Of a stretch of DNA of 52,398 bases, positions 7,072 through 45,779 are shown piece after piece. The position numbers and the translations under genes are program-made. The stretch spans positions 1 through 52,398 of the forward strand of contig NZ_JAHDIG010000030.1 in the NCBI RefSeq assembly GCF_020630935.1, given 5' to 3'. The DNA is from Bernardetia sp. (GTDB taxonomy: Bacteria; Bacteroidota; Bacteroidia; Cytophagales; Bernardetiaceae). The stretch's first letter is position 1; each line of letters begins with the position of its first letter. Under the pieces are notes generated by a model. It ran no database searches, was not told the origin of the DNA, and saw only the letters and a list, made by a program, of their open reading frames with translations.

Positions 7072-7192
7072 TAGAGTACTGGACATGAGATAAAAAGTTG
7101 TTGGTGTCGCTACGCTAAAACACCAACAAACGGTGTTTTTTCTCTGTTCTGTGACTCACAGAACAGCAAATATATTGATGTCCAGTACTCTA
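7072..7192. mobile_element. Cloverleaf repeat family A, copy 1
   Basis: This 121-bp element is bounded by a perfect 15-bp terminal inverted repeat, TAGAGTACTGGACAT / ATGTCCAGTACTCTA. Inside are two hairpins: GTTGGTGT / ACACCAAC and CTGTTCTGTG / CACAGAACAG with a 3-nt loop. Copies 2 and 3 are at 10066-10188 and 45657-45779. It sits between the topA stop codon and its terminator. The ends start and finish with TA, compatible with a TA target, but no transposase is nearby. Confidence 0.9.
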
Positions 7193-7216
7193 TGATTTTT
7201 CTTATTAGAAATATTG

Positions 7217-7256
7217 AAACCACCTTCATCAAAAAGCGAATGAAAGGTGGTTTTTT
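7217..7256 (+). terminator. Rho-independent terminator for topA
   Basis: Stem AAACCACCTT / AAGGTGGTTT with a loop of about 16 nt and a T run. It lies beyond the family A element, so the element is transcribed as part of the topA 3' UTR. Confidence 0.75.
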
Positions 7257-7332
7257 AGATTATTTTTGTAAAAATAGAATTTTATAACTATTTTTTTGAA
7301 GTATTTTTATGTAAACCTATCTTTAAAATGAG

Positions 7333-7340
7333 TATCTTTG
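7333..7340 (+). promoter_or_regulatory. Candidate -7 promoter box
   Basis: TATCTTTG fits the TAnnTTTG box and lies 22 bp before the ATG at 7363. No good -33 TTTG is seen at the expected distance. Confidence 0.35.
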
Positions 7341-7362
7341 ATTAGAATAAATAACTCTAAGT

Positions 7363-7881
7363 ATGAAAAAAACAAAACAATTCTATTTTCTAGCAGCCAC
7401 CTTCATTATTTCAATGTGCTTTTCATTTGTGATAAAGAATAATTTTGATACAGTTATTCCCATAGACGAAAATCAGCTTATTGAGCTTACCAAAAAGGAG
7501 AGCGATTCTCTGCATATCATAAATTTTTGGGCTACTTGGTGCGCTCCTTGTGTGCGTGAATTACCTCATTTTAATGAAGCTAACAAAAAATACAATGACC
7601 AAATTTCTATGAATCTTGTCAGTATGGATTTTGACAACCAATTAGAGAAACGAGTTATTCCATTTTTTCAGCGAAAAAACTTTTCAGAGTATGCAATGGA
7701 TAAGTACTTGATTACGTCTATGAAATATGACGACTGGATGCCCAAAATAGATAAAAACTGGTCAGGCTCTATACCAGCCACGCTTTTTTACAACAAAACT
7801 AAAAATGTTTATCACTTCCATGAAGGCGATTTCAATGAAGAAGAACTCTTTCATACTATTGATTCGCTTTTGGCGTTGTGA
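7363..7881 (+). CDS. TlpA/ResA-like thiol-disulfide oxidoreductase
   Basis: This 172-residue protein has an N-terminal hydrophobic anchor or signal (residues 8-26), then a thioredoxin fold starting at HIINFWATWCAPC, with the redox pair C60 and C63 in the WCAPC motif. A second family feature is the cis-proline region SIPATLFY. The layout matches membrane-anchored TlpA/ResA proteins, which reduce disulfides in the periplasm, often for cytochrome c maturation; no cytochrome gene is near. Its partner gene downstream (start at 7944) is also thioredoxin-like, so the two probably form a small redox unit. Confidence 0.87.
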   Translation: MKKTKQFYFLAATFIISMCFSFVIKNNFDTVIPIDENQLIELTKKESDSLHIINFWATWCAPCVRELPHFNEANKKYNDQISMNLVSMDFDNQLEKRVIPFFQRKNFSEYAMDKYLITSMKYDDWMPKIDKNWSGSIPATLFYNKTKNVYHFHEGDFNEEELFHTIDSLLAL

Positions 7882-7943
7882 TAAGAAAAGTTTTAATTTC
7901 TATATTTCAAATTTTATTCAATTCTCAAATTTCTATTTTTATT

Positions 7944-8567
7944 ATGAATTATAACAAGTTTTTTACTTCTATTTCTGTGTTAGTAGCTATGTTGGTGGTT
8001 GTCTTATTTGCTGCTGCTACCGATGAAAATGGATACGCTGTTGGTGATGAGGCAACAGATTTCAATTTGAAAAATATTGATGGCAAAATGGTTTCACTAG
8101 CTAGTATGAAAGATGCTAAAGGCTATATTGTTACTTTTACGTGTAACCACTGTCCGTATGCAAAACTTTATGAAGACCGTCTAATAGAACTTCATAACCA
8201 GTTTGCAGAGCAGGGCTATCCAGTAGTGGCTATTAATCCAAATGTTTTGACACAAGAAGATGACACTTACGAAAAAATGATTGAGCGTGCTGCAGAGAAA
8301 GAGTTTCCTTTCGTATATCTTGCAGACGAAGACCAAAATATTACCAAAACGTATGGTGCTACAAAAACTCCACACGTTTACGTATTGAGCAAAAATGATG
8401 GTAAGCTAAAAGTAGAATACATTGGAGCTATCGACGACAATGCAAAAAGTGCAGAAGAAGCAGAAGAAATGTATGTAGAGAATGCTGTAAATGCTCTTTT
8501 GGCTGGTAAAAAAGTAAAAAAGAAAGAAGCCAAAGCAGTAGGCTGTTCTATCAAATGGAAAAAATAA
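7944..8567 (+). CDS. Secreted thioredoxin/AhpC-TSA-fold protein
   Basis: From the ATG at 7944 the protein has 207 residues; the longer reading from a GTG at 7878 would place 22 residues before a normal signal peptide, so 7944 is preferred. A signal peptide of about 27 residues ends near FAAATDENG. The redoxin domain starts YAVGDEATDFNLKNIDG and holds TFTCNHCPYAK with a CxxC pair (C67, C70). The cis-proline region reads KTPHVYVLS. The C-terminus is lysine-rich and ends CSIKWKK. Members of this family are annotated as thioredoxin-family or redoxin proteins of unknown substrate. It follows the TlpA-like gene closely and ends at a strong shared terminator. Confidence 0.85.
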   Translation: MNYNKFFTSISVLVAMLVVVLFAAATDENGYAVGDEATDFNLKNIDGKMVSLASMKDAKGYIVTFTCNHCPYAKLYEDRLIELHNQFAEQGYPVVAINPNVLTQEDDTYEKMIERAAEKEFPFVYLADEDQNITKTYGATKTPHVYVLSKNDGKLKVEYIGAIDDNAKSAEEAEEMYVENAVNALLAGKKVKKKEAKAVGCSIKWKK

Positions 8568-8588
8568 TTGCTTGATAGAAACGTAAAA

Positions 8589-8623
8589 AAAGCGACGTTC
8601 TACTGTAGAATGTCGCTTTTTTA
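8589..8623. terminator. Bidirectional terminator between convergent genes
   Basis: Stem AGCGAC-TTCTAC / GTAGAA-GTCGCT flanked by A and T runs. It serves the redoxin gene (+) and probably the repeat protein gene (-) ending at 8645. Confidence 0.8.
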
Positions 8624-8644
8624 TTTTATTAAGTAATTTTCAAT

Positions 8645-9895
8645 TTATCGTATCAAGACAATTTCATCGCTAATTACTTCTGATTCGTTTCCAGCATCGT
8701 CTTTAAACTTTATAAATACCGATTTTTTGCCATTTTCTCCTACCAAACGCCAATCACTGATAAGTTCTTCGTAAGGCAACCAACGACTACCTCTGAAATT
8801 TTCTGAATTTGAAATCATCATATATTTTGCATCTTCTGCTTTGATAACTAATTCAACAATTCCATCAATGTGTCTTGAGGTTTGGTCACCACCATTTATA
8901 ATGATGCTTATATTTGAAGGAGGCGTTGAATCTACATCTATACTTGCCGAGACTACTTCTGTTGTGTTTTTTGCATTATCTCTAAACTTGGCATATAGTG
9001 TTTTTTCTCCATCACCTTCTGAAAGTGTCCATTTCAAATACCTTTGCATCTGCTGCCATTCTGCTCCTTCAAAATTTTCGTTGTCTGCAACCATCATTTC
9101 AGTTGCTCCTCCTGCTGTTAGTGCGAGCTGTACTTCTGCTGATTGTTTTGTAGTTGCTGGTTCGCCTCCATTGATGGTTATAGATGGGCGCACAGGACCT
9201 TGCGTATCAAGAATTACCTTGTCTGAAACTACTTCTGAAATATTACCAGAACGGTCTCTAAATTTGGCAAACACCATCTTAACTCCATCTAATTTGTTTC
9301 CAAGTTGCCAATCTGCTATCTCTGGAGTAACAATTTGCCAACGCTGACGGTAAAATGAACGATGATTTGAAACCATTACATAATAACGCCTATCAGGTTC
9401 TTCAGCACTTACCAAAAGTTTTACAAGTTGTGTCGAATCTTTAATGGCTTCTCCTTCCACATCAATTTTGAGCTTTGGGTTTTTCGGAGCAGTCATATCC
9501 AAATGAATATTGGCTGTTACTATTGCCATCATGTTTGCTTTAGCATCTTTAAAACGAACATACACTTTTTGGTCGCCATCCTCTGGAATAAGTTTCCAAC
9601 CATAAACAGTTGGTTGATAAGGAATCCAATGTGCATCTATGAAATCTTGACGGTTGCTTATCTGCATCTGCGTAACATCATACGCTGCAATTTGAAGCGT
9701 AACGAAAGGTGTGCGTGTATAATGACTTCCTCTATTGATAGTAAGCCTGTTGGTAGAATCTTTTTTAAAGTTGAACTGCGCCCAAGAAGTGGTAGAAATG
9801 CAACATGAAAAGAATAAAAAAATAAGACTAATCAACAATTTTTGAGAACGTAAAAATATATGAGTAGAATAACACAATGAATTGCAATTTATCAT
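8645..9895 (-). CDS. Secreted protein with four tandem Ig-like repeats
   Basis: This 416-residue protein has a long N-terminus ending in a signal peptide (hydrophobic core about residues 18-35, cleavage near SWAQ). It then shows four repeats of about 90-95 residues. Each contains a M-x-(I/V)-S/A-(N/D)-x-x-x-F segment, a W-x-x-(Y/M) stretch, a W-x-L-x-x-x-G-x-K-x-(V/L)-(Y/F)-x-K-F-(K/R)-D core and a closing E-V-(V/I)-S element followed by D-(S/T)-x-x-P. The pattern is typical of beta-sandwich repeats in secreted or cell-surface proteins. No catalytic motif or type IX sorting domain is visible. The exact function is unknown. The gene is monocistronic; its 5' side is followed by a family A element. 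Confidence 0.7.
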   Translation of the reverse strand: MINCNSLCYSTHIFLRSQKLLISLIFLFFSCCISTTSWAQFNFKKDSTNRLTINRGSHYTRTPFVTLQIAAYDVTQMQISNRQDFIDAHWIPYQPTVYGWKLIPEDGDQKVYVRFKDAKANMMAIVTANIHLDMTAPKNPKLKIDVEGEAIKDSTQLVKLLVSAEEPDRRYYVMVSNHRSFYRQRWQIVTPEIADWQLGNKLDGVKMVFAKFRDRSGNISEVVSDKVILDTQGPVRPSITINGGEPATTKQSAEVQLALTAGGATEMMVADNENFEGAEWQQMQRYLKWTLSEGDGEKTLYAKFRDNAKNTTEVVSASIDVDSTPPSNISIIINGGDQTSRHIDGIVELVIKAEDAKYMMISNSENFRGSRWLPYEELISDWRLVGENGKKSVFIKFKDDAGNESEVISDEIVLIR

Positions 9896-10065
9896 CTTGA
9901 TTATGATTGAGTAATGATTTGTCCGTATGAAAAGCTATTTTTATAGGATAATTCTTAATGAAAATTACCTATCAATTTCCCTAAAAGTATGCCAAAATTA
10001 CTAAAAATAAAAGGAACAGAAGAAGAGTAAAAAAGAAACAAAGTAGGAAAAATAATATTTCTCTA

Positions 10066-10188
10066 TAGAGTATTGGATATGAGATAAAAAGTTGTTGGTG
10101 TCGCTACACTAAAACACCAACAAACGGCATTTTATCCCTGTTCTGTGACTCACAGAACAGCAAATATCTATTAATGTCCAGTACTCTA
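10066..10188. mobile_element. Cloverleaf repeat family A, copy 2
   Basis: 123 bp, same architecture as the copy at 7072-7192. The right end is intact (ATGTCCAGTACTCTA) and the left end carries two changes (TAGAGTATTGGATAT). Both internal hairpins are intact. The last three bases (10186-10188) are the TAG stop of the receptor gene read on the minus strand. Confidence 0.9.
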
Positions 10189-13026
10189 ATTATTTCTACC
10201 TCTAGTTCTGCCACTTCCTCTTTGTTGTTTTTCTAGTTCTATGGCTTTTGCTGTTTTGAAGTTACGAATCATATAGGTAAAACTTACCATGAAATAACGT
10301 TGTAAAACCTGTGTTTGTATATCTTCAATGTAGGTTTCTGTAACATTTCTAGCAATACTATTATTTTGTCCCAATAAATCAAATACATTTAACTTTATTT
10401 CAGCTCTTTCATTTTTCAAAAAACGTTTGCCTATTCCCATACTCCAAAGTAAAAAATCTTGATTGAAATTATCTGACAAACCATTATAACTCTGATAACT
10501 TATGTCATTTTGCCATAAAAATCCCTTTCCTAAAAAGAATAGGTTTCTAAATTCTAAATTATGTGTAATAAAGTTGTTGTCAGCTTGAGGTTGAATAGTG
10601 TTTTCTACAATATTGTATCCTAAGTTATAAGTAATTCCAAAATCTATTTTTTCATTGATATTGCTACTTAGTGTGATACCTTCTGTAACAACATAATTGT
10701 TTGCTATATTTTCCTCACCATTAATAAAAGTAGGTGTTCGGTTATATGAAAATTGATTATTAAAATTAAGATTAAATTTCCAAAAAGGAATGCCTATCAT
10801 AGCATTGATACGACTGGTAACGTATCCATCTATATTGACAGGACGAGTAAGCTGTACTCCTTCTGAGAGTAAAACTCCTTCTACTGTTAGCGAATCTTGT
10901 GTAGCTATCCAAGTAGAATTGGTAATATAGTCGTTGGTGTTTCGGATATAAGCAAAGGCAAAAAAATTGATACGTTTGTCAGGGTTATTATACGAATAAC
11001 GAGCAATATAACGGTTTTCTATCTGCTGTTTGAGGTCTTCATTTCCAGTAGAAAGCTGTAAAGGATTACTGTTATTAAGCACTTCTTGAAGTTGCGTAAT
11101 TTGAGGATTACGAGTAGAAGAACGATAAATTAAGCGCAAATTACTATTTTCAGAAATTTTGTACCTAATAACAACTCTAGGCAAGATATTTTGAAAATTT
11201 CTGTTGAAGTCTGTTTCATAAGGGAAAATTTGTCCTCCTTTCAAAGAAGCATTTTGGTAAGTAAAAGCAGTATTAATATTGAGCTTTTTGGTACGGTAAC
11301 TATACCCTGCGCTTGCTTGATGATATAAATAATTGCTTTCAAGAGTAGAAGAGAGCTGATTATTGAGCTGTCTTTCAGTTTGATTTTCTAAAAAGATATC
11401 AAAAGTTTCAGTTTCATTTTTCAACTGATTGTTAGAGTATTCATATTCTAATTGTAAACTAGATTTTTCAGAGAGAGGTTCTGTATATTCTAATTCAGTT
11501 GCCCAAAGAATATCATTTTGTTGGTTGAATGTTTCTTGTTGAAGAGTATCAGCACTTTTAAAGGTTTCTACATTGGCAAAAAGTGTGTTCTCTCCGTCTT
11601 GTATGTTGGCTTGTGTATTCAGTTTGGCAGAAATAGTGCGTCCACGTTTCTTAAAACGATGACGAAAAAGAACATCATTTTCAAAGTTGAGGGCAGAGGA
11701 ATTACTATTTAAATTGTTTGTGGTTTGGTTGAGTAAAAAATTATCTGTGGTGCTAGTTGTGGCATCAGTCAAGTTTTCACTCTTATAATTTTGAATATTC
11801 AGACGTGGTGTAAGTATGAGTTCATTGACCGAATCTATTTTGTATTCAAAACGAAGAGCAAAACGATGGTTCTGATTATTACTATTGCTGATTTGATTTT
11901 GTCGGTAAAACTGATTTTGAGTCGATGAATTATTATCTTCTTGAAGGAAAAAATCTCTAGTTAGGTTGGTAGAAGCATCGTTTTGACTCAAATTAAAAAA
12001 ATAACTTCCTGAAAGCTGTATTTTTTTGCCCCACTCGTCGCTATAATTAATACCTATACTATGGGTTTGAGTAATTCCATTTTGTCCACCTACTAAAAAA
12101 TTATTTACATCGCTTGGATTTCCTCTATTTCTTCTCCAACGTCTTGTATTGTTTTCTGAACCCACCACACCCAAAAGGTCTTGGGTAGAAAAATTTTGCT
12201 GACTTACATTATTTGTAATTCCGATAACAGAAATACGTTGTTTTCCATTAAAGAAATTAATATTTCCTCCTCCAATATAACGCTCATCTGTACCATAACC
12301 ACCATAAACTTTTCCAAACTGTCCGTTTCGGCTATCTTTTTTAGTAACAATATTTATCGTCTTGACCGTATTTCCATCGCTTACTCCTGAAAAACGTGCT
12401 TGGTCGCTTTCTTGGTCAAAGACTTGTACTTTTTCTATAATTTCGGCAGGTAAATTTTTGAGAGCTACACTGGCATCATTTCCAAAAAATTCTTTTCCAT
12501 CTACCAAAACTCGTCCAACTTGTTCGCCTTGTGCTTGAATTTGTCCGTTTTCCGTAGTAATGGTTGGCATTTTTTTGAGTAGTGTTTCTGCATCTGCATT
12601 TTTTTCGGTAGTAAAGGCAGAGGCATTATATTGTGTGGTATCACCTAATTGTTCAGAGACGACCTGCTGTCCTTCAATAGTTACGGCTAGAAGTGTACTA
12701 GCTTGTAAATATATAGGCTCTAGAACCGTATTGGGTTGAGAGATAATAATTTTTTGGGAATGGTTTTGATACCCTACAAAGCTAATTTGAAGAAAATATT
12801 CTTTTTGTGAAAGATTTTTAAAATAAAATTTGCCTTCCAAGTCGGTGGTAGCAAAAACGAATTTTGATGTATCGTTAGCAAAGCGCAAGACTACATTGGA
12901 AGCTATCAAAGGCTCGTTAGTCTCTTCTTCTAAAACTTTACCCTCAAGGTTATAAGTTTGCCCCATAACAGAGACACTCAATGTACACACAAATAAAAAC
13001 ACAAAAGCACAGAAAAAAGATTTCAT
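10186..13026 (-). CDS. TonB-dependent receptor-like outer-membrane beta-barrel protein
   Basis: From the ATG at 13026 the protein has 946 residues and begins with a clear signal peptide (KSFFCAFVFLFVCTLSVSVMGQ); the upstream in-frame TTG at 13044 would spoil it. A carboxypeptidase-regulatory-like domain follows (YNLEGKVLEEETNEPL to about residue 110). Next is a plug-like domain with VLVDGKEFFGNDASVALKN and IEKVQVFDQESDQARFSG, then a long Asn/Gln/Ser-rich beta barrel ending in an aromatic-rich strand. It resembles the Bacteroidota outer-membrane family that imports ligands or secretes surface components. No SusD partner is adjacent, so the substrate is open. The stop codon is supplied by the end of a family A repeat. 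Confidence 0.85.
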   Translation of the reverse strand: MKSFFCAFVFLFVCTLSVSVMGQTYNLEGKVLEEETNEPLIASNVVLRFANDTSKFVFATTDLEGKFYFKNLSQKEYFLQISFVGYQNHSQKIIISQPNTVLEPIYLQASTLLAVTIEGQQVVSEQLGDTTQYNASAFTTEKNADAETLLKKMPTITTENGQIQAQGEQVGRVLVDGKEFFGNDASVALKNLPAEIIEKVQVFDQESDQARFSGVSDGNTVKTINIVTKKDSRNGQFGKVYGGYGTDERYIGGGNINFFNGKQRISVIGITNNVSQQNFSTQDLLGVVGSENNTRRWRRNRGNPSDVNNFLVGGQNGITQTHSIGINYSDEWGKKIQLSGSYFFNLSQNDASTNLTRDFFLQEDNNSSTQNQFYRQNQISNSNNQNHRFALRFEYKIDSVNELILTPRLNIQNYKSENLTDATTSTTDNFLLNQTTNNLNSNSSALNFENDVLFRHRFKKRGRTISAKLNTQANIQDGENTLFANVETFKSADTLQQETFNQQNDILWATELEYTEPLSEKSSLQLEYEYSNNQLKNETETFDIFLENQTERQLNNQLSSTLESNYLYHQASAGYSYRTKKLNINTAFTYQNASLKGGQIFPYETDFNRNFQNILPRVVIRYKISENSNLRLIYRSSTRNPQITQLQEVLNNSNPLQLSTGNEDLKQQIENRYIARYSYNNPDKRINFFAFAYIRNTNDYITNSTWIATQDSLTVEGVLLSEGVQLTRPVNIDGYVTSRINAMIGIPFWKFNLNFNNQFSYNRTPTFINGEENIANNYVVTEGITLSSNINEKIDFGITYNLGYNIVENTIQPQADNNFITHNLEFRNLFFLGKGFLWQNDISYQSYNGLSDNFNQDFLLWSMGIGKRFLKNERAEIKLNVFDLLGQNNSIARNVTETYIEDIQTQVLQRYFMVSFTYMIRNFKTAKAIELEKQQRGSGRTRGRNN

Positions 13027-13044
13027 AAAAAAATAAGGTATCAA

Positions 13045-13239
13045 TGTAAAAAAATAATGCTTCTCTATGACACCAAATAATCTTAAAAGTTTAATCTAAA
13101 CCTTGTTTAAAAATGTTAATAATCAAGCATGTTTATGTAGGAAGTGTTATTCCACTGTTTTTGGTTAGTATAACCTCTAAATAACGTGAATTTGGGATTA
13201 ACAATAAGGTTTTTATTTGTTTAAAATAGATTAGATATA
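13045..13239. other. Non-coding spacer upstream of the receptor gene
   Basis: AT-rich, no credible open frame. I see no promoter matching the TAnnTTTG consensus on the minus strand for the receptor. Confidence 0.5.
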
Positions 13240-13410
13240 GAACTTGTTTAAGAATGGTTTTCTAGCGCAAGATTCCATCTTGTGCTTACCGTTTCGTCAG
13301 CATATGCTGACAAAAAAGTGCGTCCAAGCAGAATGCTTGAACGAGAAATAATAAATAAAATTTACTCTACACTTCATTCAAGCTACTTTTTTCCATTCTT
13401 AAACAACTTC
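13240..13410. mobile_element. Cloverleaf repeat family B, copy 1
   Basis: This 171-bp element has 18-bp terminal inverted repeats with one mismatch (left GAACTTGTTTAAGAATGG, right CCATTCTTAAACAACTTC). Three hairpins lie inside: GCGCAAGAT / ATCTTGTGC, the perfect palindrome GTCAGCATATGCTGAC, and CAAGCA / TGCTTG. Copy 2 is at 13580-13791 in the same orientation. Confidence 0.88.
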
Positions 13411-13528
13411 ATAGTTTTTAGTCTGCTCTAACGAGACTGAACTAACTTATATTAAGGTCAGACCGATAGGGCAGTACCGATATACAAAAAATACAAGCAA
13501 AGGAAGCTAACTCTTTATTTCTAAAAGC

Positions 13529-13567
13529 GTAAACTGAAAAATGCACAGAAGAAGCTGTGTAGTTTAC
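13529..13567. repeat. Stand-alone two-step hairpin between family B copies
   Basis: Outer stem GTAAACT / AGTTTAC and inner stem CACAG / CTGTG around a short loop. It lacks a T run, so it is not an obvious terminator. Confidence 0.5.
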
Positions 13568-13579
13568 AATTCTAGATTA

Positions 13580-13791
13580 GAAGTTGTTTTAAGAATGTCT
13601 TTCTAGCGCAAGATTCCATCTTGTGCTTACTGTTTTGTCAGCATATGCTGACGAACTGAAAGTCGGTGTAGCCAAAACATGCGTCCAAGCAGAATGCTTG
13701 AACGAGATAAAATGAGTAGAACCTACTCTATACTTAATTTAAGACTCTTTTTTCTATTAGCTTCTCTCGCTTTTAGGTCTTAAACAACTTC
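13580..13791. mobile_element. Cloverleaf repeat family B, copy 2
   Basis: 212 bp. The ends read GAAGTTGTTTTAAGA on the left and TCTTAAACAACTTC on the right. The first hairpin and the GTCAGCATATGCTGAC palindrome match copy 1. A segment of about 28 bp absent from copy 1 precedes the CAAGCA / TGCTTG hairpin. It lies 14 bp before the 3' end of cobS. Confidence 0.88.
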
Positions 13792-13805
13792 TTAATTAAT
13801 GTCTA

Positions 13806-14645: not shown

Positions 14646-14822
14646 AAAAGTAGGAGTATAGAAGTCGTATTCGATTCGACTATAAACGTAATATACTTTA
14701 TTTCTGTTTGCTGAGACAAAATTCTCTTAAAAAAATACGTTATAAGGGAACAAAATAAGTCATTTTTTACTAATTTTACTATCTTAAAATAAACTCAAAA
14801 TATCAAAGATTACACATTTTCA

Positions 14823-16918: not shown

Positions 16919-16922
16919 TATT

Positions 16923-37565: not shown

Positions 37566-37594
37566 AAATTCAAGATATTTCGTTGTAAATACAC

Positions 37595-37634: not shown

Positions 37635-37657
37635 CTAACTATGAGAAATACAGTAGT

Positions 37658-37692
37658 TAATTAATCATTTATAATTAACAACTAATCATTAT
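37658..37692. repeat. Heptad tract at the 3' end of secDF
   Basis: Five units with TAATTAA occurring twice, ending exactly at the secDF stop codon (37693). Confidence 0.6.
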
Positions 37693-40600
37693 TTAGTATT
37701 TCTTCGGTTTTTTAGGCTTACGAAGAGGCTGTGCTTCTTGCTGTGGTTGAGGATTGTTAGCTTCCTCTTCCATTTCTTTTAAGTATTGAGCCATTTCCTC
37801 TTTGTCTGCATACTGTTGAGCATATTTTTCTTTTCTTTGTTCCATTGCCTTACGCTCATTTTCAATAGCATTTTTAGAATATAAGTCTAAAACTAAAGGA
37901 GTTGCAACAAAAACAGAAGAGTATGTACCCACAATTACACCGATAAGGAGAGCAAAAGAAAACCCTTTGAGAGCTTCTCCACCAAAAATAAACAATATCA
38001 AGACTACTAAAAGCGTCGTTACAGAAGTGATGAGCGTTCTACTAAGTGTTTGGTTTACAGCACCATTGATAGTTTCTTGTAGGCTTTCTTCTACTCTTTC
38101 ATTAAGAGCTTCACGAATACGGTCAAATACAACTACGGTATCATTGAGTGAGTAACCAATTACAGTCAAGATAGCTGCGATAAATACTTGGTCAATCTCT
38201 ACAGCAAACCCTAAAAGATAAGCAATTGCAAAGAATGAAATTACAATCAAACTATCATGTGTAAGGGCAGCCACAGCACCAGCACCGAAACGCCAGTTGC
38301 TAAAACGAACTGAAATATAACCAAACATCAAAATCAACGCTACAATAACAGCCGTACGAGCCGAATCTGCAATATCGTCTGCAATCGTTGCACCTACTTT
38401 TGATGTACTTACAACTTCTGGACTAAGAGCAGTGTATTTGTCTCCCAAACTAGCCATAATCTCACCTTGAATTTGCTCATCTGCATCAGTAGATTCTTCT
38501 TCCGAACGGTAACTTGTAGTAATTTTTACTTTGTCATCTCCATCATAGCTTTTTACTTCTACTGATGTATTGAGTTTTTGCTCAATGCTTGCTTCAATTT
38601 CAGAAGGAGTTACACTTTGAGAAAATGCTACTACATACGAGCGTCCACCTGTGAAATCTACACCCATATTTAATCCATTTACAAACAAAACAACTACACC
38701 AACAGCAATCACAACACCAGAAAGAACATAACCTATTTTACGCTTGCCCATAAAGTTAATGTTCGTATTTGCCAACATGCTCTTAGTAAATGGAGTAGAG
38801 AAAGACATATTGCTCTCATCTCCTTTACGGCTCATTAAGTAAATAATCAGACGACTGATATAAACAGCAGTAAAGAATGAACAAACAATACCAATCATTA
38901 GAGTTACTGCAAAACCTTTGATAGGACCAGCTCCCAAAACATAAAGTACAACCGAAGTGATAAGTGTTGTTACATTGGCATCAATGATAGTAATCAAAGC
39001 TCGTTGGAAACCATCTTCAATAGAAGCCATCAAACCTTTTCCTAGTGCGAGTTCTTCACGGATTCTTTCAAAGATAAGAACGTTGGCATCTACTGACATA
39101 CCGATTGTGAGTACGATACCTGCAATACCTGGAAGTGTAAGGGCAGCACCAAGCTGAGCCAAAAGACCAAAGATGAAGAAGATGTTAGCTACAAGAGCCA
39201 CGTTAGCCACAATACCAGCCTTAGCATAGTAGATAATCATAAACAAGACTACCAAGCCAAGTCCAACCAAGATAGAAATAATACCTTGAGATTGTGCAGC
39301 AGCACCCAAAGAAGGTCCTACAACAGCTTCTTCTACGATACGAGTTGGAGCAGGAAGTTTACCAGCTTTCAAAATGTTAGCTAAGTCTTTTGCTTCATCT
39401 ACTGTAAAACTACCAGAGATAGATGAGCGTCCACCACCAATTTCTTCATTTACATTAGGAGCAGAATACACATAGTCATCCAAAACAATAGCAATCTGAC
39501 GACCTACATTTTTTCCTGTTAGGTTTTTCCAAAGACGTGCGCCTTCTCCGTTCATTGCTAAAGAAACCTCAACTTGTCCGTTTGGATTGATGTCTTGACG
39601 AGCATCTGTTACAACTTCTCCTGTCATTGGAGCTTTTCCACCTACTGCTGTCTTGATAACGTGTAACGTGTAGAATGCTTTTCCGTCTGCTTCTACATCT
39701 GGTTTTACACTCCAGAAGAATTTCATATCTTTAGGAATAACAGATTTTACGTCTGGGTCATTCAATATCTGATTGATAGAAGCTGTATCTAATGCCTCAT
39801 ACGTGAGTGTAAAGTAGTTTTGACTGATTGGAACAAGTTTTTCGAAAAGAGGAGAAACTTGTTGATTTTGAGTAGTATCTGTATCAGCTAAAGAATCTTC
39901 AATTTTAGAAGAATCACCTTCATTTGCAGCTATATCAGTACTGTCATTTGTGTCCATTATCAAATCGTCTCCTGTGCTTGCTGTATTTGTAGTATCTTGA
40001 AGAGTCAAATCATCTGTATTTGGAGTCTCAACCTTCTCCATACGATTTTCTACCCAAAATGTATTGATTTGAGTAAGAACTTGTTGATATTCTTGTGGCT
40101 GATATACTTCCCAAAACTCTAATTTTGCAACACCTTGCAATAAATCACGTACACGTTCTGCATTATTCACACCTGGTAATTCTACTTGAATACGGCTTGT
40201 TCCTTCAATAAGCTGAACATTTGGTTGAGTTACTCCAAACTTATCTACACGAGTACGAATGATTTCGAAAGCTCTTTGAACCGAACCATCTACTTCTGAA
40301 CGGATAAAATCTTCTACTTCTTTATCTGAAGAACGGAAATTGATTTTTCCACTGTTTGCAGAAGTAGCAAAAACGTCTTTGAGTTTGCCTTCTCCAGCTT
40401 TCGCTTGGTAAGCATCAAAGAAAAGTTCTACATAACGGTCTTGGCTAGAAGCCTGTTGTTTGTTGGCTTCTGCAAGAGCTGCCAAAAAGTCTTCGTTTTG
40501 GCTATTGTTAGAAAGAGACTTCAAAATATCTACTGGAGAAACCTCAAGTGTTACGTGCATACCACCTTGAAGGTCAAGTCCTAAATTGAGTTCTTTTTCT

Positions 40601-40809
40601 TTTACTTCTTGATAAGTAAAATCAAAAATTGGATAAACAGGCTGTGACCACATAGAGTCTAAATACTGTTTTTTGAGTTGTTCATCACCTTGAGCATATT
40701 CGGCTGCCTCACTCTCTATATTGTTAGAAACAAGTGTAAAAGAGAGAGAAAACAAGCACAAAACAGCAAAAAGGATAGCAAGGAATATAATAAAACCTCT
40801 GTTTTGCAT
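37693..40809 (-). CDS. secDF: Fused SecDF protein translocase subunit
   Basis: This 1038-residue inner-membrane protein uses the proton gradient to drive late steps of Sec-dependent export. The SecD half shows the N-terminal helix, LGLDLQGGMHVTLEV, RAFEIIRTRVDKFGV and a long periplasmic loop containing an Asp/Thr-rich insert; GMSVDANVLIFERIREEL is the SecD signature. The SecF half starts near residue 670 with GLNMGVDFTGGRSYVV and contains IGYSLNDTVVVFDRIREAL. A Lys/Gln-rich tail ends in RKPKKPKKY. Fusion of the two subunits is normal in Bacteroidota. Confidence 0.97.
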   Translation of the reverse strand: MQNRGFIIFLAILFAVLCLFSLSFTLVSNNIESEAAEYAQGDEQLKKQYLDSMWSQPVYPIFDFTYQEVKEKELNLGLDLQGGMHVTLEVSPVDILKSLSNNSQNEDFLAALAEANKQQASSQDRYVELFFDAYQAKAGEGKLKDVFATSANSGKINFRSSDKEVEDFIRSEVDGSVQRAFEIIRTRVDKFGVTQPNVQLIEGTSRIQVELPGVNNAERVRDLLQGVAKLEFWEVYQPQEYQQVLTQINTFWVENRMEKVETPNTDDLTLQDTTNTASTGDDLIMDTNDSTDIAANEGDSSKIEDSLADTDTTQNQQVSPLFEKLVPISQNYFTLTYEALDTASINQILNDPDVKSVIPKDMKFFWSVKPDVEADGKAFYTLHVIKTAVGGKAPMTGEVVTDARQDINPNGQVEVSLAMNGEGARLWKNLTGKNVGRQIAIVLDDYVYSAPNVNEEIGGGRSSISGSFTVDEAKDLANILKAGKLPAPTRIVEEAVVGPSLGAAAQSQGIISILVGLGLVVLFMIIYYAKAGIVANVALVANIFFIFGLLAQLGAALTLPGIAGIVLTIGMSVDANVLIFERIREELALGKGLMASIEDGFQRALITIIDANVTTLITSVVLYVLGAGPIKGFAVTLMIGIVCSFFTAVYISRLIIYLMSRKGDESNMSFSTPFTKSMLANTNINFMGKRKIGYVLSGVVIAVGVVVLFVNGLNMGVDFTGGRSYVVAFSQSVTPSEIEASIEQKLNTSVEVKSYDGDDKVKITTSYRSEEESTDADEQIQGEIMASLGDKYTALSPEVVSTSKVGATIADDIADSARTAVIVALILMFGYISVRFSNWRFGAGAVAALTHDSLIVISFFAIAYLLGFAVEIDQVFIAAILTVIGYSLNDTVVVFDRIREALNERVEESLQETINGAVNQTLSRTLITSVTTLLVVLILFIFGGEALKGFSFALLIGVIVGTYSSVFVATPLVLDLYSKNAIENERKAMEQRKEKYAQQYADKEEMAQYLKEMEEEANNPQPQQEAQPLRKPKKPKKY

Positions 40810-40819
40810 GATTTTAATT

Positions 40820-40854
40820 AATTACGAATTACAAATTAAAAATTACGAATACAG
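40820..40854 (-). repeat. Heptad leader of secDF
   Basis: Five units in exact 7-bp phase; read on the plus strand they begin AATTACG, AATTACA, AATTAAA. On the coding strand the unit is CGTAATT. The tract ends 10 bp before the ATG. Confidence 0.75.
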
Positions 40855-40990
40855 TTGGCATAGCCAATTATAATGTTTCGAACATAATCAATAGGTAATT
40901 CAATGTTTGAAATTGAAATATATAAATGTGAAATAAAATTACGATAGGGATAAAACAGATACATAATGCACTTAAATGATTTAAAAGCAT

Positions 40991-41025
40991 TTAACTGATT
41001 ATTGGTAACTGTTTACTGACAACTG
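40991..41025 (-). repeat. Heptad tract CAGTTAY after the 41027 gene
   Basis: On the minus strand five units follow in 7-bp phase: CAGTTGT, CAGTAAA and three related units. It begins 1 bp after the stop codon of the upstream gene and is the counterpart of 24205-24239. Confidence 0.75.
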
Positions 41026-41026
41026 A

Positions 41027-41458
41027 CTATGGTGCATTTGGGGAAATAAAGCAGTTGAATAGTGTCTTGAAGAACCCTGAACTAGAAAAGTAGTAGGTTA
41101 CACTATTGAGTTTTTGAATAGAAAAAGAAGGAAATATAAACTCTATGCTTGGTGTCAGAATTATGTTATAGAATAATTCTGTAATTACAAATCCTTGCAG
41201 AAGTGCTTCTGAAGAAGTTGCTGATTTGAGTGTTAGTGGCTCTTTTTCTCGTTGCTCTTTGTTTTCATCAGATAGTTGTGTATCTGAATAGTTATCAGCC
41301 TCTGTATTTTCAAGTAAGCTAATGAAATTATTTCCTACTACATCTGTTTTTTCCTCTCCATTAGCAAAACGCATTGTTGTCGAAAAGACAACTAATAGGA
41401 GCATAAAATAGCCCATAAAGTGGTTGCGAGAAGATGTAAAAAAGTTTGTAGGCAACAT
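41027..41458 (-). CDS. Hypothetical secreted protein
   Basis: I do not recognise this 143-residue protein. Residues 13-33 form a hydrophobic segment (GYFMLLLVVFSTTMRFANG) that looks like a signal peptide or anchor. A charged, probably disordered middle follows (residues 34-80). The C-terminal part, with LFYNIILTPSIEFIFPSFSI and a run of aromatic residues, is hydrophobic. It sits behind a strong Bacteroidota promoter and may be transcribed with secDF. No conserved catalytic pattern is visible. Confidence 0.55.
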   Translation of the reverse strand: MLPTNFFTSSRNHFMGYFMLLLVVFSTTMRFANGEEKTDVVGNNFISLLENTEADNYSDTQLSDENKEQREKEPLTLKSATSSEALLQGFVITELFYNIILTPSIEFIFPSFSIQKLNSVTYYFSSSGFFKTLFNCFISPNAP

Positions 41459-41493
41459 TTTTATAATTGAATACAGATTTCTTGATTGGTCTG

Positions 41494-41524
41494 CAAAAGT
41501 AGTGTTTTTTACTTGGTATTACAA
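41494..41524 (-). promoter_or_regulatory. Bacteroidota-type promoter for the 41458 gene
   Basis: Read on the minus strand: TTG, 20 bp, TACTTTTG. The -7 box fits TAnnTTTG. Confidence 0.65.
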
Positions 41525-41544
41525 GATTATGAATAAAAATAGTT

Positions 41545-41588
41545 AAAATAAAAAAAAGTCTTTATTCATTTTTAGAATAAAGACTTTA
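41545..41588 (-). terminator. Terminator downstream of tRNA-Met
   Basis: Perfect 13-bp stem AAAGTCTTTATTC / GAATAAAGACTTT. On the minus strand the stem is followed by a T run. Confidence 0.88.
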
Positions 41589-41595
41589 ATTTTAG

Positions 41596-41669
<74 letters not shown>

Positions 41670-41721
41670 ATTTACTATTTATCTTATGAATAAGTGATTT
41701 TCTTTTCCCTTATTGCGAGTG

Positions 41722-41752
41722 CAAAGGTACGTGTTTTTTTTATTTTTCCAAA
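41722..41752 (-). promoter_or_regulatory. Bacteroidota-type promoter for tRNA-Met
   Basis: On the minus strand: TTTG, exactly 19 bp, TACCTTTG. Both boxes match the consensus and point into the tRNA gene. Confidence 0.85.
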
Positions 41753-41918
41753 TAATTTAAGAGAAAAAAACAGAAAAAGTGTCTCATTATTTTTGTTTGT
41801 TGTTGAAAGCTGTTGCAAATCAGCATTTTAACAAGCAATTATTTTTTTATCAAAACTTTGTTTTATGCTTTTTAGTTCGATAGCTTTCTAGTTTATTCAA
41901 TTAAACCTCATATAACTT

Positions 41919-42365
41919 ATGGAACTTAAAAAAGGTGATAAAGCACCAGAATTTACAGCTCACGACCAAAACGGACACGAAATAAAACTCTCTCAGCTCA
42001 AAGGAAAAAAAGTCATACTTTATTTCTATCCAAAAGACGATACTCCTGGTTGTACGGCACAGGCTTGCAACCTAAGAGATAATTATACTACACTCAAAGA
42101 AAAAGGATATGAAGTATTGGGAGTGAGTAAAGACGGTGCTGCTTCTCATAAAAAATTTGCTGAAAAATACGATTTACCATTTCCTTTATTGGTAGATGAA
42201 GACCATTCTATCAATGAAGCATATGGTGTTTGGAAAGAAAAAAATATGTTTGGTAAAAAATATATGGGTACACAGCGCACTACTTTTGTCATTGATGAAG
42301 AGGGAAAAATTGAGGACGTGATTAAAAAAGTCAAAACAAAAGAACACGCCGAACAAATTATGTAA
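41919..42365 (+). CDS. bcp: Bcp-type thiol peroxidase (PrxQ)
   Basis: This 148-residue peroxiredoxin reduces hydrogen and organic peroxides. YFYPKDDTPGCTAQAC carries the peroxidatic cysteine C45 and the resolving cysteine C50 five residues later, the alpha2-type arrangement of Bcp/PrxQ. The QRTTFVIDEEGKI strand near the C-terminus carries the conserved arginine. It is cytoplasmic. The gene is monocistronic; about 165 bp without a gene separate it from the tRNA-Met promoter, and a symmetrical hairpin terminator follows. Confidence 0.95.
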   Translation: MELKKGDKAPEFTAHDQNGHEIKLSQLKGKKVILYFYPKDDTPGCTAQACNLRDNYTTLKEKGYEVLGVSKDGAASHKKFAEKYDLPFPLLVDEDHSINEAYGVWKEKNMFGKKYMGTQRTTFVIDEEGKIEDVIKKVKTKEHAEQIM

Positions 42366-42376
42366 AATAAAACTAT

Positions 42377-42406
42377 AGAAGTTAGAGTTTAAAAGCTCTA
42401 ACTTCT
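42377..42406. terminator. Hairpin between bcp and the lipoprotein gene
   Basis: Perfect stem AGAAGTTAGAG / CTCTAACTTCT with an 8-nt loop; only a weak T run. Confidence 0.65.
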
Positions 42407-42429
42407 TTGTTAGGTTTATTTAGTTCTGT

Positions 42430-42966
42430 TTATTTGACTCTCCTCATTACAAATTCAGTAACATATTTTCCATACCACTCTGGTTTTTGCCCGTTTGGAT
42501 AGGTTTCATCGAAAAAAATAAGCCTCAACAAATCATCTTTTATAGTGTATCTGTAAAACTGTTTTCCTCCCTCAAATCCAGGTACTTTGGCTATACGTGC
42601 TGTGGTAATTACAGTTGAATCTGTCATGGTATAAGTTCCTCCATTGAAAACCACAGAGCTAAAACCAGCCATTTTTTCTTCATCTGTTGGCTTTGAAAGG
42701 TTTGCGAAAGGAGTTCTAGGTTTGTCTATAGGAGTCCACATAATAGAATAACGGTCTTTTTCGAAGATAAACAAACCGTATTGAGCCTTTGGAATAGAAT
42801 AAATGGTATCTTTAGTTTTCCAATGCACTTCTACCATTTCCCAAGAACCTAAAAGTGGAGGCTGTTTGTCTTGAGAGCCATAGTAGTTTTTAACAGTTGT
42901 TTTACAAGCTGAAAAACTAATTACAGAAAATATCGATAAGCCCAAAAGTAAAAGTTTGAATTTCAT
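42430..42966 (-). CDS. Lipocalin-like putative lipoprotein
   Basis: The start at 42966 gives 178 residues with a proper lipoprotein signal (KFKLLLLGLSIFSVISFSAC, cysteine 21); the longer frame from 43047 is not needed. After the lipobox the protein shows LLGSWEMVEVHW near the N-terminus, then YGLFIFEKDRYSIMW and YTMTDSTVITT. This beta-rich pattern is shared with lipocalin-like proteins of Bacteroidota. It is probably an outer-membrane or periplasmic lipoprotein. The gene is divergent from the MBL-fold gene at 43061. Confidence 0.75.
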   Translation of the reverse strand: MKFKLLLLGLSIFSVISFSACKTTVKNYYGSQDKQPPLLGSWEMVEVHWKTKDTIYSIPKAQYGLFIFEKDRYSIMWTPIDKPRTPFANLSKPTDEEKMAGFSSVVFNGGTYTMTDSTVITTARIAKVPGFEGGKQFYRYTIKDDLLRLIFFDETYPNGQKPEWYGKYVTEFVMRRVK

Positions 42967-43060
42967 AATAGAAGCATTTATTTTGTAAATTATTAATTCA
43001 AAACAAGATACCAATAAAGTGAGATGGTTAAAAATTAACATCTCCAATTTTTATATTTCT

Positions 43061-43705
43061 ATGATTTCTATACAGCAATTTACGTTCAATCCTTTCCAAG
43101 AAAATACTTTCATTTTATTCGACGAAACAAAAGAAGCCATTATCATTGACCCTGGGTGTTATACTCCACATGAAAAAGAAATTTTGAAATCTTTTATCAG
43201 CCAAAATGATTTGAAGGTTGTACGACTTATCAATACGCATTGTCATATAGACCACGTTTTGGGAAATAAATTTGTAAAAGACACTTACAATGTAAAGTTA
43301 GAAGCGCACCGAATTGAATCAGAACAACTCAACCAAGTTCCCTTGTATGCTCCATCTTATGGTTTTGGAGTGTATGAAGCCACTACGGTAGATGTTTTTA
43401 TAGATGAAAATACAGAAATAAAATTTGGTAATTCAACCTTAACAACTCTTTTCGTTCCTGGTCATTCTCCTGGACACTTAGCATTTTATTCGGCAGCACA
43501 AAAATTCTGTATCAATGGAGATGTTCTATTCTTTCAAAGCATTGGCAGAACAGATTTACCTGGTGGGAATATGGAAGTTTTGAGAGATACGATTCAAAAT
43601 GTAATGTATAAACTACCCGATGATACAAAAATTTATTGTGGACACGGAAATCCAACAAGCATTGGTTTTGAGAAAAAGAATAACCATTTTATCAGAGAAA
43701 TTTAA
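43061..43705 (+). CDS. Metallo-beta-lactamase-fold hydrolase (glyoxalase II-like)
   Basis: From the ATG at 43061 the protein has 214 residues; the ORF can be read from 43019, but the 43061 start gives the common N-terminus MISIQQFTFNPFQENTFIL. The metal site is THCHIDH, with further ligands in VPGHSPGH, INGDVLF and YCGHG. These features match hydrolases of the glyoxalase II or persulfide dioxygenase branches. The exact substrate is unclear. It is cytoplasmic. A 166-bp gap follows before the permease gene. Confidence 0.9.
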   Translation: MISIQQFTFNPFQENTFILFDETKEAIIIDPGCYTPHEKEILKSFISQNDLKVVRLINTHCHIDHVLGNKFVKDTYNVKLEAHRIESEQLNQVPLYAPSYGFGVYEATTVDVFIDENTEIKFGNSTLTTLFVPGHSPGHLAFYSAAQKFCINGDVLFFQSIGRTDLPGGNMEVLRDTIQNVMYKLPDDTKIYCGHGNPTSIGFEKKNNHFIREI

Positions 43706-43871
43706 AAAAAATAAACTGTTTTGGTCTAAGAACGTTTTAAAGCTGCCTTGACTAAGTTCTCTTAATTCTATTTCTTTAGATAAACTTCAGTTTTTGTATA
43801 TTTGAGGCTGAGTTATTCGTTTATTTAAAGACAGAAAATACATCCACATTTTTTCAACTAAGCTATCCTAT

Positions 43872-44600
43872 ATGAAAAGCATTGGTAAGTACATGATTTT
43901 TTTGAGTAGAACGGTAACAGATATGGAACCGTGGCACGTCTATATTCGCCTTTTTGTAGATGAATGTATGCGAATTGGTATCAGTTCGGTTTATATTGTT
44001 ACTATTATATCTACTTTTATTGGTGCTGTAACGGCTGTACAGACGGCTTATAACCTTGTGAGTCCACTCATTCCAAAATCTCTTATCGGTACGATTGTGC
44101 GTGATATGACAGTTTTGGAACTTGCCCCAACTATTACTGCCATTGTATTTGCTGGTAAGGTAGGTTCTAATATCGCTGGTGGTTTGGGAACAATGCGAAT
44201 CACAGAACAAATTGATGCGATTGAGGTAATGGGAATTAATGCTACTTCTTATCTTGTTTTTCCAAAAATTTTGGCTGGAATCGCTACTTATCCTTTGCTT
44301 GTAATTTTAGCAGCTTTTTTGGCGATTGGTGGTGGTTATTTAGCTGGAACGCTCACTGGACAGCTTACAGCAGTAGAGTATGTATATGGAATCCGTTTAG
44401 ATTTTGTAGAGTTTAATATTACCTTTATGCTTATCAAATCAGTTGTTTTTGCCTTTTTAGTTACTACTATTTCGGCTTACAAGGGTTTTTATACACGAGG
44501 AGGAGCATTAGAAGTAGGAGAGGCAAGTACAAAAGCCGTAACAACAAGTTGTATTGCTATTCTTTTGGCTGACTACCTACTTGCTCAAATGCTTATCTAA
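43872..44600 (+). CDS. mlaE: MlaE-type ABC transporter permease
   Basis: This 242-residue multi-span inner-membrane protein belongs to the MlaE/YrbE family, which moves phospholipid or other lipids between the membranes of diderm bacteria. The family pattern is clear: FIGAVTAVQTAYNL, MTVLELAPTITAIVFAGKVGSNIAGGLGTMRITEQIDAIEVMGINA, and a C-terminal CIAILLADYLLAQ. The ATPase (MlaF) and the MCE-domain protein expected beside it are not within this window; the next gene encodes an unrelated protein of unknown function. The partner genes may lie elsewhere in the genome. Confidence 0.92.
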   Translation: MKSIGKYMIFLSRTVTDMEPWHVYIRLFVDECMRIGISSVYIVTIISTFIGAVTAVQTAYNLVSPLIPKSLIGTIVRDMTVLELAPTITAIVFAGKVGSNIAGGLGTMRITEQIDAIEVMGINATSYLVFPKILAGIATYPLLVILAAFLAIGGGYLAGTLTGQLTAVEYVYGIRLDFVEFNITFMLIKSVVFAFLVTTISAYKGFYTRGGALEVGEASTKAVTTSCIAILLADYLLAQMLI

Positions 44601-44652
44601 TATTTATCAGTTAAAATTCTTCATTCATTGCTAACTCTTATCACTAAAAAAA

Positions 44653-45087
44653 TTGTCTGACCAAAACATAACACCTAAAAAATCTATTCGTCCAGAAATT
44701 CAAAATGTAGTTCTTTCAGAGACGATGACAGGAGAAGAGCGTTTTCAGAATGTTACCTTGCGTCCTATCTTGAAACTTCAAAACAAGATTTTACTCGCTA
44801 TTTTCAGAGATTACATTTCAGAAAAAGAAGCTAAGAAGACTAAAAATAATGAAAAACAACGAGGGTATTTTAGACTTTCAGCCACCAAACAAAGAGAGTT
44901 TATCGATACCGTTTTTCAAAAAGATATAAAATTTAAAAGTCAGTTGTTAGGAATGATAATCGGACATTTCGATTTGGAAGAGTATAACTTATATGCTCAA
45001 AATAAAACTGGAACAGACAGAAGAATTATAAACTTGTTGAAAGAACGTATTTTTACTGGTTTAGCAGAATTGCAACAAGACTCTTAA
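44653..45087 (+). CDS. Conserved Bacteroidota protein of unknown function (often mislabelled glyoxalase)
   Basis: The 144-residue protein starts at TTG with no in-frame ATG upstream. It has RPEIQNVVLSETMTGEERFQNVTLRPILKLQNKILLAIFRDYI near the N-terminus and QLLGMIIGHFDLEEYNLY with GTDRRIINLLKERI toward the end. These blocks are typical of a small helical protein found in many Bacteroidota and frequently annotated as glyoxalase without evidence. It has no signal peptide. It lies 52 bp after the MlaE gene, and may be co-transcribed with it. Confidence 0.7.
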   Translation: MSDQNITPKKSIRPEIQNVVLSETMTGEERFQNVTLRPILKLQNKILLAIFRDYISEKEAKKTKNNEKQRGYFRLSATKQREFIDTVFQKDIKFKSQLLGMIIGHFDLEEYNLYAQNKTGTDRRIINLLKERIFTGLAELQQDS

Positions 45088-45148
45088 ATGCCATTCTTGA
45101 ACTTTTTTTAAAGAAAAAGCAGCATCTCTTTCATTCAAATAAAATATT

Positions 45149-45649
45149 ATGAATTATCTAATTTACCAATCTGTTATATTTTTAGTTCTTAGTTTTATCT
45201 CGTTTAAGGGTTTTGCTCAAGACGAATCTAAAAATCCTTTAGTTTGTGTCAATGACAAAGAAAATGTAGTCTCTTCTGCAATGGAAGGGAAGTGGTTTTC
45301 TAAGCAAGAAGGTTATACTCTCATTTTTAAAAAAGATACAACTGTTTTAGAACAAATTCCCTCAAAGTATTATCCTTTTTTAGAAGACAAAACCATTTAT
45401 TCAGCAGGTTATATTACGATAAAGTCAGAAACAAAAGTTTATGCTGAAGATACGCCCTATTTTTTAACTGTTTTGAGTGGAAATCCTCATATAGTTTGGT
45501 TTAGAGAAAGAAATGGCGACCCATTAGGAGATGCAGAAAGTTTTAATGTTTTTATTGCTATTGGTGAAACTACTGCTGATGACCTTCTCTATATGGGAGG
45601 AGATTTCAATAACCAACCTTTTTTGCGTTTTACGAGAGTTAAAAAATAA
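45149..45649 (+). CDS. Hypothetical secreted protein
   Basis: The 166-residue protein begins with a signal peptide (hydrophobic core IYQSVIFLVLSFISFKGFAQ, cleavage after the Ala-Gln region). The mature part is rich in beta-forming and aromatic residues (GKWFSKQEGYTLIFKKDTT, YYPFLEDKTIYSAGYITI, and a final QPFLRFTRVKK). I do not recognise the family. It could be a small lipocalin-like or beta-sandwich protein of the periplasm. A family A repeat starts 8 bp after the stop codon. Confidence 0.6.
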   Translation: MNYLIYQSVIFLVLSFISFKGFAQDESKNPLVCVNDKENVVSSAMEGKWFSKQEGYTLIFKKDTTVLEQIPSKYYPFLEDKTIYSAGYITIKSETKVYAEDTPYFLTVLSGNPHIVWFRERNGDPLGDAESFNVFIAIGETTADDLLYMGGDFNNQPFLRFTRVKK

Positions 45650-45656
45650 TTATTAT

Positions 45657-45779
45657 TAGAGTACTAGACACAAGATAAAAAGTTGTTGGTGTCACTATGC
45701 TAAAATACCAACGAACGGTATTTTTCCCCTATTCTGTAACTCACAGAACAGCAACTATCTGTTCATGTCCAGTACTCTA
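45657..45779. mobile_element. Cloverleaf repeat family A, copy 3
   Basis: 123 bp. Right end ATGTCCAGTACTCTA intact, left end TAGAGTACTAGACAC with two changes. Each internal hairpin carries a single change, which costs a perfect pair or gives a G-U on one strand. It lies between the secreted protein gene and the binding-protein gene, which converge. Confidence 0.9.

What the first reader, a model, noticed from the sequence alone, without database searches (positions are those of the whole stretch)
7072..45779. Family A: three cloverleaf elements with 15-bp terminal inverted repeats
Copies at 7072-7192, 10066-10188 and 45657-45779 share TAGAGTACTGGACAT ends and two internal hairpins. The right end is identical in all three. 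Internal arms stay pairable, although copy 3 has one changed base per arm. Length is almost constant (121-123 bp). All three lie at gene 3' ends. This looks like a compact REP- or MITE-like family with TA-like ends and no transposase visible. I cannot name a described family that matches.
Basis: partly seen in the sequence, partly recalled or inferred. Interest (0 to 1): 0.75.

Follow-up and report, generated by a model that had tools for sequence, protein, structure and literature searches.

The report
IS4-type miniature transposon with REP core
The three repeats are copies of a short, gene-less jumping DNA element of a Bernardetia bacterium that makes 9-base duplications where it lands, shares its ends with a known type of transposon (IS4 family), and carries inside it a hairpin repeat that also occurs on its own in related genomes.

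Summary
Three copies lie at the stated places, and the genome holds dozens more. They are a MITE, but not a TA/IS630-type one: the ends are flanked by 9-bp direct repeats (exact in 31 of 56 end pairs in the window's genome and 20 of 30 in a relative; random pairing 0 and 1 of 200). TA is a constant part of the ends, not the duplication. Three relatives hold a 1,208-bp insertion sequence with nearly the same 15-bp ends (14 of 15 bases), 9-bp repeats at copies in two of them, and a DDE transposase with the IS4 YREK signature. It was not found in the window's genome or in the other element-rich genome, so the partner is lost, unassembled or elsewhere. The first internal hairpin is a repeat seen in all seven genomes of the genus and flanks a RAYT-like gene in two; the interior resembles a REP doublet capped by IS4-type ends. 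Covariation is weak. In one relative 13 of 15 right-end-only copies break right after the second hairpin; five of these carry long host duplications (24-83 bp), unexplained. A new variant of a known kind.

The parts
7063..7071 (.). left 9-bp target duplication of copy 1 (TGATTTTTC)
7072..7192 (+). copy 1 of the MITE, 121 bp: 15-bp TIRs (7072-7086, 7178-7192), hairpin 1 (REP) and hairpin 2
7193..7201 (.). right 9-bp target duplication of copy 1 (TGATTTTTC)
10066..10188 (+). copy 2 of the MITE, 123 bp; the first three bases of its right TIR on the minus strand (TAG) are the stop codon of the outer-membrane protein gene 10186-13044. Duplication degenerate (10054-10062 AATATTTCT versus 10189-10197 ATTATTTCT, read by eye)
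45648..45656 (.). left 9-bp target duplication of copy 3 (AATTATTAT)
45657..45779 (+). copy 3 of the MITE, 123 bp, between two convergent genes
45780..45788 (.). right 9-bp target duplication of copy 3 (AATGATTAT, one mismatch)

Best explanation
The three copies belong to a non-autonomous DNA transposon (MITE) of Bernardetia. A DDE transposase of the IS4 type binds the 15-bp inverted ends, inserts the 121-123 bp element into AT-rich, mostly intergenic DNA and leaves a 9-bp direct repeat (commonest form A-N7-T). Shown: ends, copy number, 9-bp repeats, one restored empty site, and an IS4-type insertion sequence with nearly identical ends in three other genomes of the genus. Inferred: that this transposase or a close relative moved the element, since it was not found in either element-rich genome. 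The interior is inferred to be a REP doublet (hairpin 1, a linker, hairpin 2) that became capped by IS4-type ends; hairpin 1 also occurs alone and probably spreads with its own RAYT. No host function is needed to explain the family; local effects (a stop codon supplied to one gene) are incidental.
For: Copies: 42 matches in the own genome from 40 of 158 candidates scored, 36 of them spanning the element; 91+89 end matches with up to 2 mismatches against 19+18 for the control pattern. 9-bp repeats exact in 31 of 56 and 20 of 30 pairs, at most one mismatch in 43 of 56 and 22 of 30; none exact at 10-12 bp or with shifted frames; random pairing exact in 0 and 1 of 200. Of 51 exact repeats 32 begin with A and 37 end with T. 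One G006 copy lies in the loop of a stand-alone hairpin-1 REP; taking out the element and one repeat gives back the consensus hairpin of other genomes. The site of copy 2 is empty in the two close relatives among 22 loci returned; that of copy 3 in 6 of 6 genus genomes, whose spacers are not syntenic on both sides. IS: 1,208 bp, ends TACAGTACTGGACAT, 9-bp repeats at L242 (G004) and L244 (G005), one ORF of 383 codons; Pfam DDE_Tnp_1 61.6 bits, cut-off 23; NCBIfam IS4_2 the best match, 127 bits; Y-x2-R-x3-E-x6-K read by eye in the ORF, the definition in PMC2266710. Hairpin 1: 24-42 matches in each of G001-G005, the listed ones at hairpin 1; hairpins on both sides of a RAYT-like gene in G000 and G003.
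Against: The transposase was not found in G000 or G006 (0 matches at E 1e-5), the two genomes with many copies; five small G000 contigs read as N. Outside the 15-bp ends the MITE and the IS show no evident likeness (by eye), so it is not a simple internal deletion of that IS. Element ends read TAGAG, IS ends TACAG. NCBIfam's own IS4_2 cut-off (152 bits) is missed. Two of the four IS copies inspected (L240, L259, G001) lack matching repeats. The five G004 copies of the transposase gene carry an in-frame TAA.
Confidence: 0.87

Rival explanations
1. IS630/Tc1-type MITE with TA target duplication.
For: All ends in the window begin with TA; one DDE_3 transposase exists in the genome.
Against: 9-bp repeats outside the TA; the DDE_3 contig carries no such end.
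Confidence: 0.02
2. A REP/REPIN doublet moved as single-stranded DNA by a RAYT, the terminal repeats being decoration.
For: Hairpin 1 is a repeat of the whole genus; a RAYT-like gene is flanked by it in G000 and G003.
Against: 9-bp duplications and conserved 15-bp ends are not expected of Y1/HUH transposition (own knowledge of IS200/IS605). The stand-alone hairpins shown in relatives have no such ends beside them.
Confidence: 0.06
3. A conserved structured RNA or bidirectional terminator kept by selection at gene ends.
For: Strong folding. 25 of 53 G000 copies have a gene 3' end within 60 bp, 11 of them 5-8 bp away. The covariation score of the alignment, 0.076, exceeds all 500 shuffles (mean 0.066) and the slid structures (0.016-0.045).
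Against: No Rfam match at gathering score; 4 of 27 pairs with double changes against 2-7 in slid structures, 25 of 500 shuffles reach 4; 17 of 53 lie between divergent genes and 17 of 53 have a gene 5' end within 60 bp; sites are empty in relatives.
Confidence: 0.04

Closest known systems
IS4-family insertion sequences, subgroup IS4Sa (PMC2266710, passages with Table 1)
   Same: The 1,208-bp IS with these ends has DDE_Tnp_1, the YREK motif, a size within 1150-1750 bp and 9-bp repeats within 8-10 bp.
   Different: Ends begin TA, not CA; NCBIfam IS4_2 score below cut-off; subgroup not tested by a tree. The MITE itself has no transposase.
Bacterial MITEs such as BrickBuilt of Porphyromonas gingivalis (PMC4596501, passages)
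   Same: Short, non-coding, intergenic, TIRs like those of a full IS; a repeat lies inside.
   Different: BrickBuilt has IS5-type ends and a tandem minisatellite; here IS4-type ends and a REP doublet.
REPs and REPtrons with RAYT transposases (PMC3733652, passages; PMC2817692, search listing only)
   Same: Hairpin 1 is short, palindromic, in many copies, and flanks a RAYT-like gene in two genomes.
   Different: The GTAG tag of classical REPs was not looked for; the MITE has TIRs and 9-bp duplications.
QMITE2 of Coxiella (review PMC10969869, passages)
   Same: A MITE/REP link: truncated copies without ends resemble REPs.
   Different: Here the stand-alone hairpin is found in all seven genomes of the genus, the full element by similarity in two, so the REP is probably the older part.
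One-ended transposition of IS801 (PMC3189936, passages); IS1549 and IS1634 (titles in the reference list of PMC2266710 only)
   Same: IS801 gives right-end fragments; IS1549 and IS1634 are titled as making long direct repeats, as five one-ended copies of G006 have.
   Different: IS801 is IS91-type, not DDE; IS1549/IS1634 were not compared here. The fixed break after a hairpin was not described in the passages seen.

Membership tests
MITE | short, many copies, too short for a transposase | tested here: met
   Commonest lengths 121-123 bp; 36 of 42 matches span the element
MITE | terminal inverted repeats | tested here: met
   15 bp
MITE | target-site duplication of fixed length | tested here: met
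   9 bp exact in 31 of 56 and 20 of 30 pairs
MITE | ends shared with an autonomous IS | tested here: met
   14 of 15 bases, in relatives only
MITE | movement by that transposase | not testable with these tools
   needs an assay
IS4 family (the 1,208-bp IS) | DDE domain and YREK signature | tested here: met
   Pfam; YREK by eye, definition
IS4 family (the 1,208-bp IS) | direct repeats of about 10 bp | tested here: met
   9 bp at L242 and L244; not at L240 and L259 (2 of 4 inspected)
IS4 family (the 1,208-bp IS) | NCBIfam curated cut-off | tested here: not met
   NF033591 127 bits against 152
IS630/Tc1 MITE | TA target duplication | tested here: not met
REP/REPIN (whole element) | no target duplication, no TIR, RAYT-linked | tested here: not met
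   TIRs and 9-bp duplications
REP (hairpin 1 alone) | palindrome in many copies and next to a RAYT | tested here: met
   the RAYT-like protein scores 22.0 bits, just under Pfam's 23
REP (hairpin 1 alone) | GTAG or CGTC tag | not tested
   -
Structured RNA | compensatory changes in stems | tested here: inconclusive
   4 of 27 pairs; score above shuffles, double changes not above slid controls

The most novel reading that the evidence does not exclude
In G006 this IS4-type system also produces one-ended insertions. DNA synthesis or cutting starts at the right end, usually stops right after hairpin 2 (GGGAAAA) at the foot of the next stem, and is joined back to nearby host DNA, leaving a half element between long, variable direct repeats (24-83 bp). 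REP hairpins inside a MITE would then set where transposition fails.
Probability: 0.3. Interest if true: 0.62.

Novelty: new variant of a known kind. Interest (0 to 1): 0.42.

Why it matters
It joins two mobile systems normally treated apart: a RAYT-linked REP hairpin inside an IS4-type MITE. It names the likely type of mobiliser and the host genus, so the family can be tested directly. The one-ended copies of the relative G006, most with one fixed internal break and some with long host duplications, could show what happens when the joining of a bacterial transposon's second end fails.

Tried and rejected
IS630: one DDE_3 hit, no such ends on its contig. Autonomous copy in the own genome: 15 small contigs with readable letters held no end at 2 mismatches or fewer, one match with 3; five more read N; protein search 0 in G000 and G006. 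A larger element sharing the left end (C103, C82, C28): looks like a different insertion next to hairpin 1. Covariation: weak. A-tract microhomology at the half-copy junctions: suggested, not upheld (0-2 matching bases in most). Assembly or in vitro artefact for the half copies could not be excluded without reads. Papers: Bernardetia with 'insertion sequence' 0 papers; MITE, REP, Bacteroidetes and RAYT together 1 paper; a search for two or more of IS4 family, MITE, 9-bp target site, Bacteroidetes listed 15 of 1,209, none on such an element by title and abstract start.

Rows dropped before counts: one search found 113 end pairs in the fetched stretches of G000 and G006, kept 91 (hairpin motif and at most 7 end mismatches), 86 after removing double pairings; some false pairs, two end pairs that are one-ended copies (L164, L227) and one related 74-bp element (L156) remain in these denominators. 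One search listed 67 distinct copies; 47 were aligned. One search listed only the first 100 of 180 end matches and searches scored 40 candidates a genome, so copy counts are lower bounds.

Full report
Observation. The six ends are the only matches in the window at up to 3 mismatches. No tRNA or Rfam family at gathering score covers them.

Copy number. The own genome (G000, 4.75 Mb, 153 contigs) has dozens of copies: 42 matches from 40 of 158 candidates scored, 36 spanning positions 1 to 120 or 121, and 91 forward and 89 reverse end matches against 19 and 18 for the control pattern. Within the seven genomes of the genus only G000 and G006 give full-length matches among those listed; in G001-G005 the listed matches lie within positions 14-78, that is at hairpin 1. 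The genus is taken to be Bernardetia: L296 is a Bernardetia MAG, and the G005 copy of the IS coincides in coordinates with a plasmid of Bernardetia sp. ABR2-2B.

Target duplication. Outside TAGAG...CTCTA lie 9-bp direct repeats: 31 of 56 pairs exact in G000 and 20 of 30 in G006; at most one mismatch in 43 and 22. No pair is exact at 10-12 bp or with a shifted 9-mer; random pairing gives 0 and 1 of 200 exact. Window copy 1 is exact, copy 3 has one mismatch, copy 2 is degenerate. A G006 copy in the loop of a stand-alone hairpin-1 REP gives back the consensus hairpin when the element and one 9-bp repeat are removed.

Empty sites. Of 22 loci returned for the gene beside copy 2, the two close relatives (L296, 79%, and L297, 74%) have no element there; the other 20 were not inspected. 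Copy 3 is absent in 6 of 6 genus genomes; the neighbour is not syntenic, so that is absence, not a clean junction. For copy 1 the stretch of L296 and L297 upstream of the next gene did not show a topoisomerase end (by eye), so nothing can be said. Copy 2 supplies the TAG stop of the outer-membrane gene 10186-13044.

Likely mobiliser. A search for TANAGTACTGGACAT in 390 genomes of the order found 14 with a match: 151 of 161 matches are in six genomes of this genus; the eight others have one or two each, against 13 control-pattern matches in all genomes, so most of those may be chance. G001, G004 and G005 hold a 1,208-bp IS with TACAGTACTGGACAT ends and one ORF. Its protein matches DDE_Tnp_1 and best NCBIfam IS4_2, below that model's cut-off, and has the YREK spacing used to define IS4 (passages of PMC2266710). 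Without stops in G001 (2 copies) and G005 (1); the 5 copies in G004 are reported with a TAA; none in G000, G002, G003, G006. Distant relatives (about 32% identity) are common in G001, G004 and G005 and have other ends. That the IS moved the MITE is inferred from ends and duplication length.

The inside. Hairpin 1 is a genus-wide repeat, found alone in relatives without the ends; in 5 of the 12 loci shown (L084, L086, L087, L088, L090) a T-rich linker and a second, different hairpin lie beside it (by eye). In G000 C28 and G003 C10 hairpins of this type lie on both sides of a RAYT-like gene (84% identity; the downstream one of C28 has a mismatched arm; Pfam Y1_Tnp 22.0 bits against 23). So the MITE looks like a REP doublet capped by IS4-type ends. 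Other elements with the same or similar ends but other hairpins exist in G003, G004 and G006.

Structure and context. In 47 aligned copies 96.8% of cells pair (shuffles 96.4, 2 of 500 as high) and the covariation score, 0.076, exceeds all 500 shuffles (0.066) and the slid structures (0.016-0.045); but only 4 of 27 pairs have a double change, reached by 25 of 500 shuffles, and slid structures have 2-7. Related copies can exceed shuffles without selection, so this is weak. With ORFs of at least 100 codons as gene proxies, 1 of 86 copies overlaps an ORF; G000 has 26 tandem, 17 divergent and 10 convergent sites; a 3' end lies within 60 bp in 25 of 53 and a 5' end in 17 of 53 (G006: 13 and 10 of 29). 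The family is intergenic but not tied to 3' ends.

One-ended copies. In G006 15 copies, contig-end cases left out, carry only the right end. Thirteen break right after GGGAAAA (L164 at 5584 and L227 are missing from the list because of a false partner). Two, L326 and L327, break beyond hairpin 1 and share the same next 24 bases. None in G006 carries only the left end away from a contig end; G000 does have such left-end copies, with other breaks, so the pattern is not general. Five of the 13 show the host flank repeated beyond the break: 83 bp with one mismatch, 30-37, 76, 42 and 24 bp; in L164 the second repeat is followed by another copy. The other eight show no long repeat in the stretch searched (L228 a bare 9-mer). 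Several complete G006 copies have internal rearrangements at or near the same point. Real one-ended insertion, later rearrangement and artefact all remain possible.

Verdict. An IS4-type MITE family with a REP core: a new variant of a known kind, of moderate interest.

Noticed in passing
G006 loci L164, L194, L220, L222, L227-L235, L326, L327: 15 right-end-only element copies; 13 break right after GGGAAAA, five of these with the host flank repeated (24-83 bp); two break beyond hairpin 1 with the same next 24 bases.
   Followed up: partly
L222 and L326 (G006): The sequence after the half element in L222 (GAATAGCAAAATTATACAACTAAAAACT) is also the left flank of the copy in L326: an ectopic join or recombination between copies.
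   Followed up: no
G000 C103 end (L067), C82 start (L080), C28 start (L081): The same roughly 40-base sequence abuts hairpin 1 at the same place in three loci and contigs end there: perhaps another IS that targets this REP.
   Followed up: partly
L145:168-707 (G000 C28) and L092:1742-2323 (G003): RAYT-like genes, 84% identical, with hairpins of the hairpin-1 type on both sides (a REPtron).
   Followed up: yes
window 10186-10188: The TIR's TAG is the stop codon of the outer-membrane gene 10186-13044.
   Followed up: yes
L257, L247 (G232), L248, L258 (G103): About 100-bp stretches with the same or similar ends but another interior in a genus of a different family of the order.
   Followed up: no
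L240 and L259 (G001): Two IS copies 12 kb apart; a 9-bp flank of one recurs at the other (ATTCCCAAA), which suggests recombination between them.
   Followed up: no
L156:4849-4922 (G006): A 74-bp element with related ends and its own 9-bp duplication ATCAAAATT.
   Followed up: no
G000 elements: 11 of 53 copies lie 5-8 bp from a gene's stop codon.
   Followed up: no
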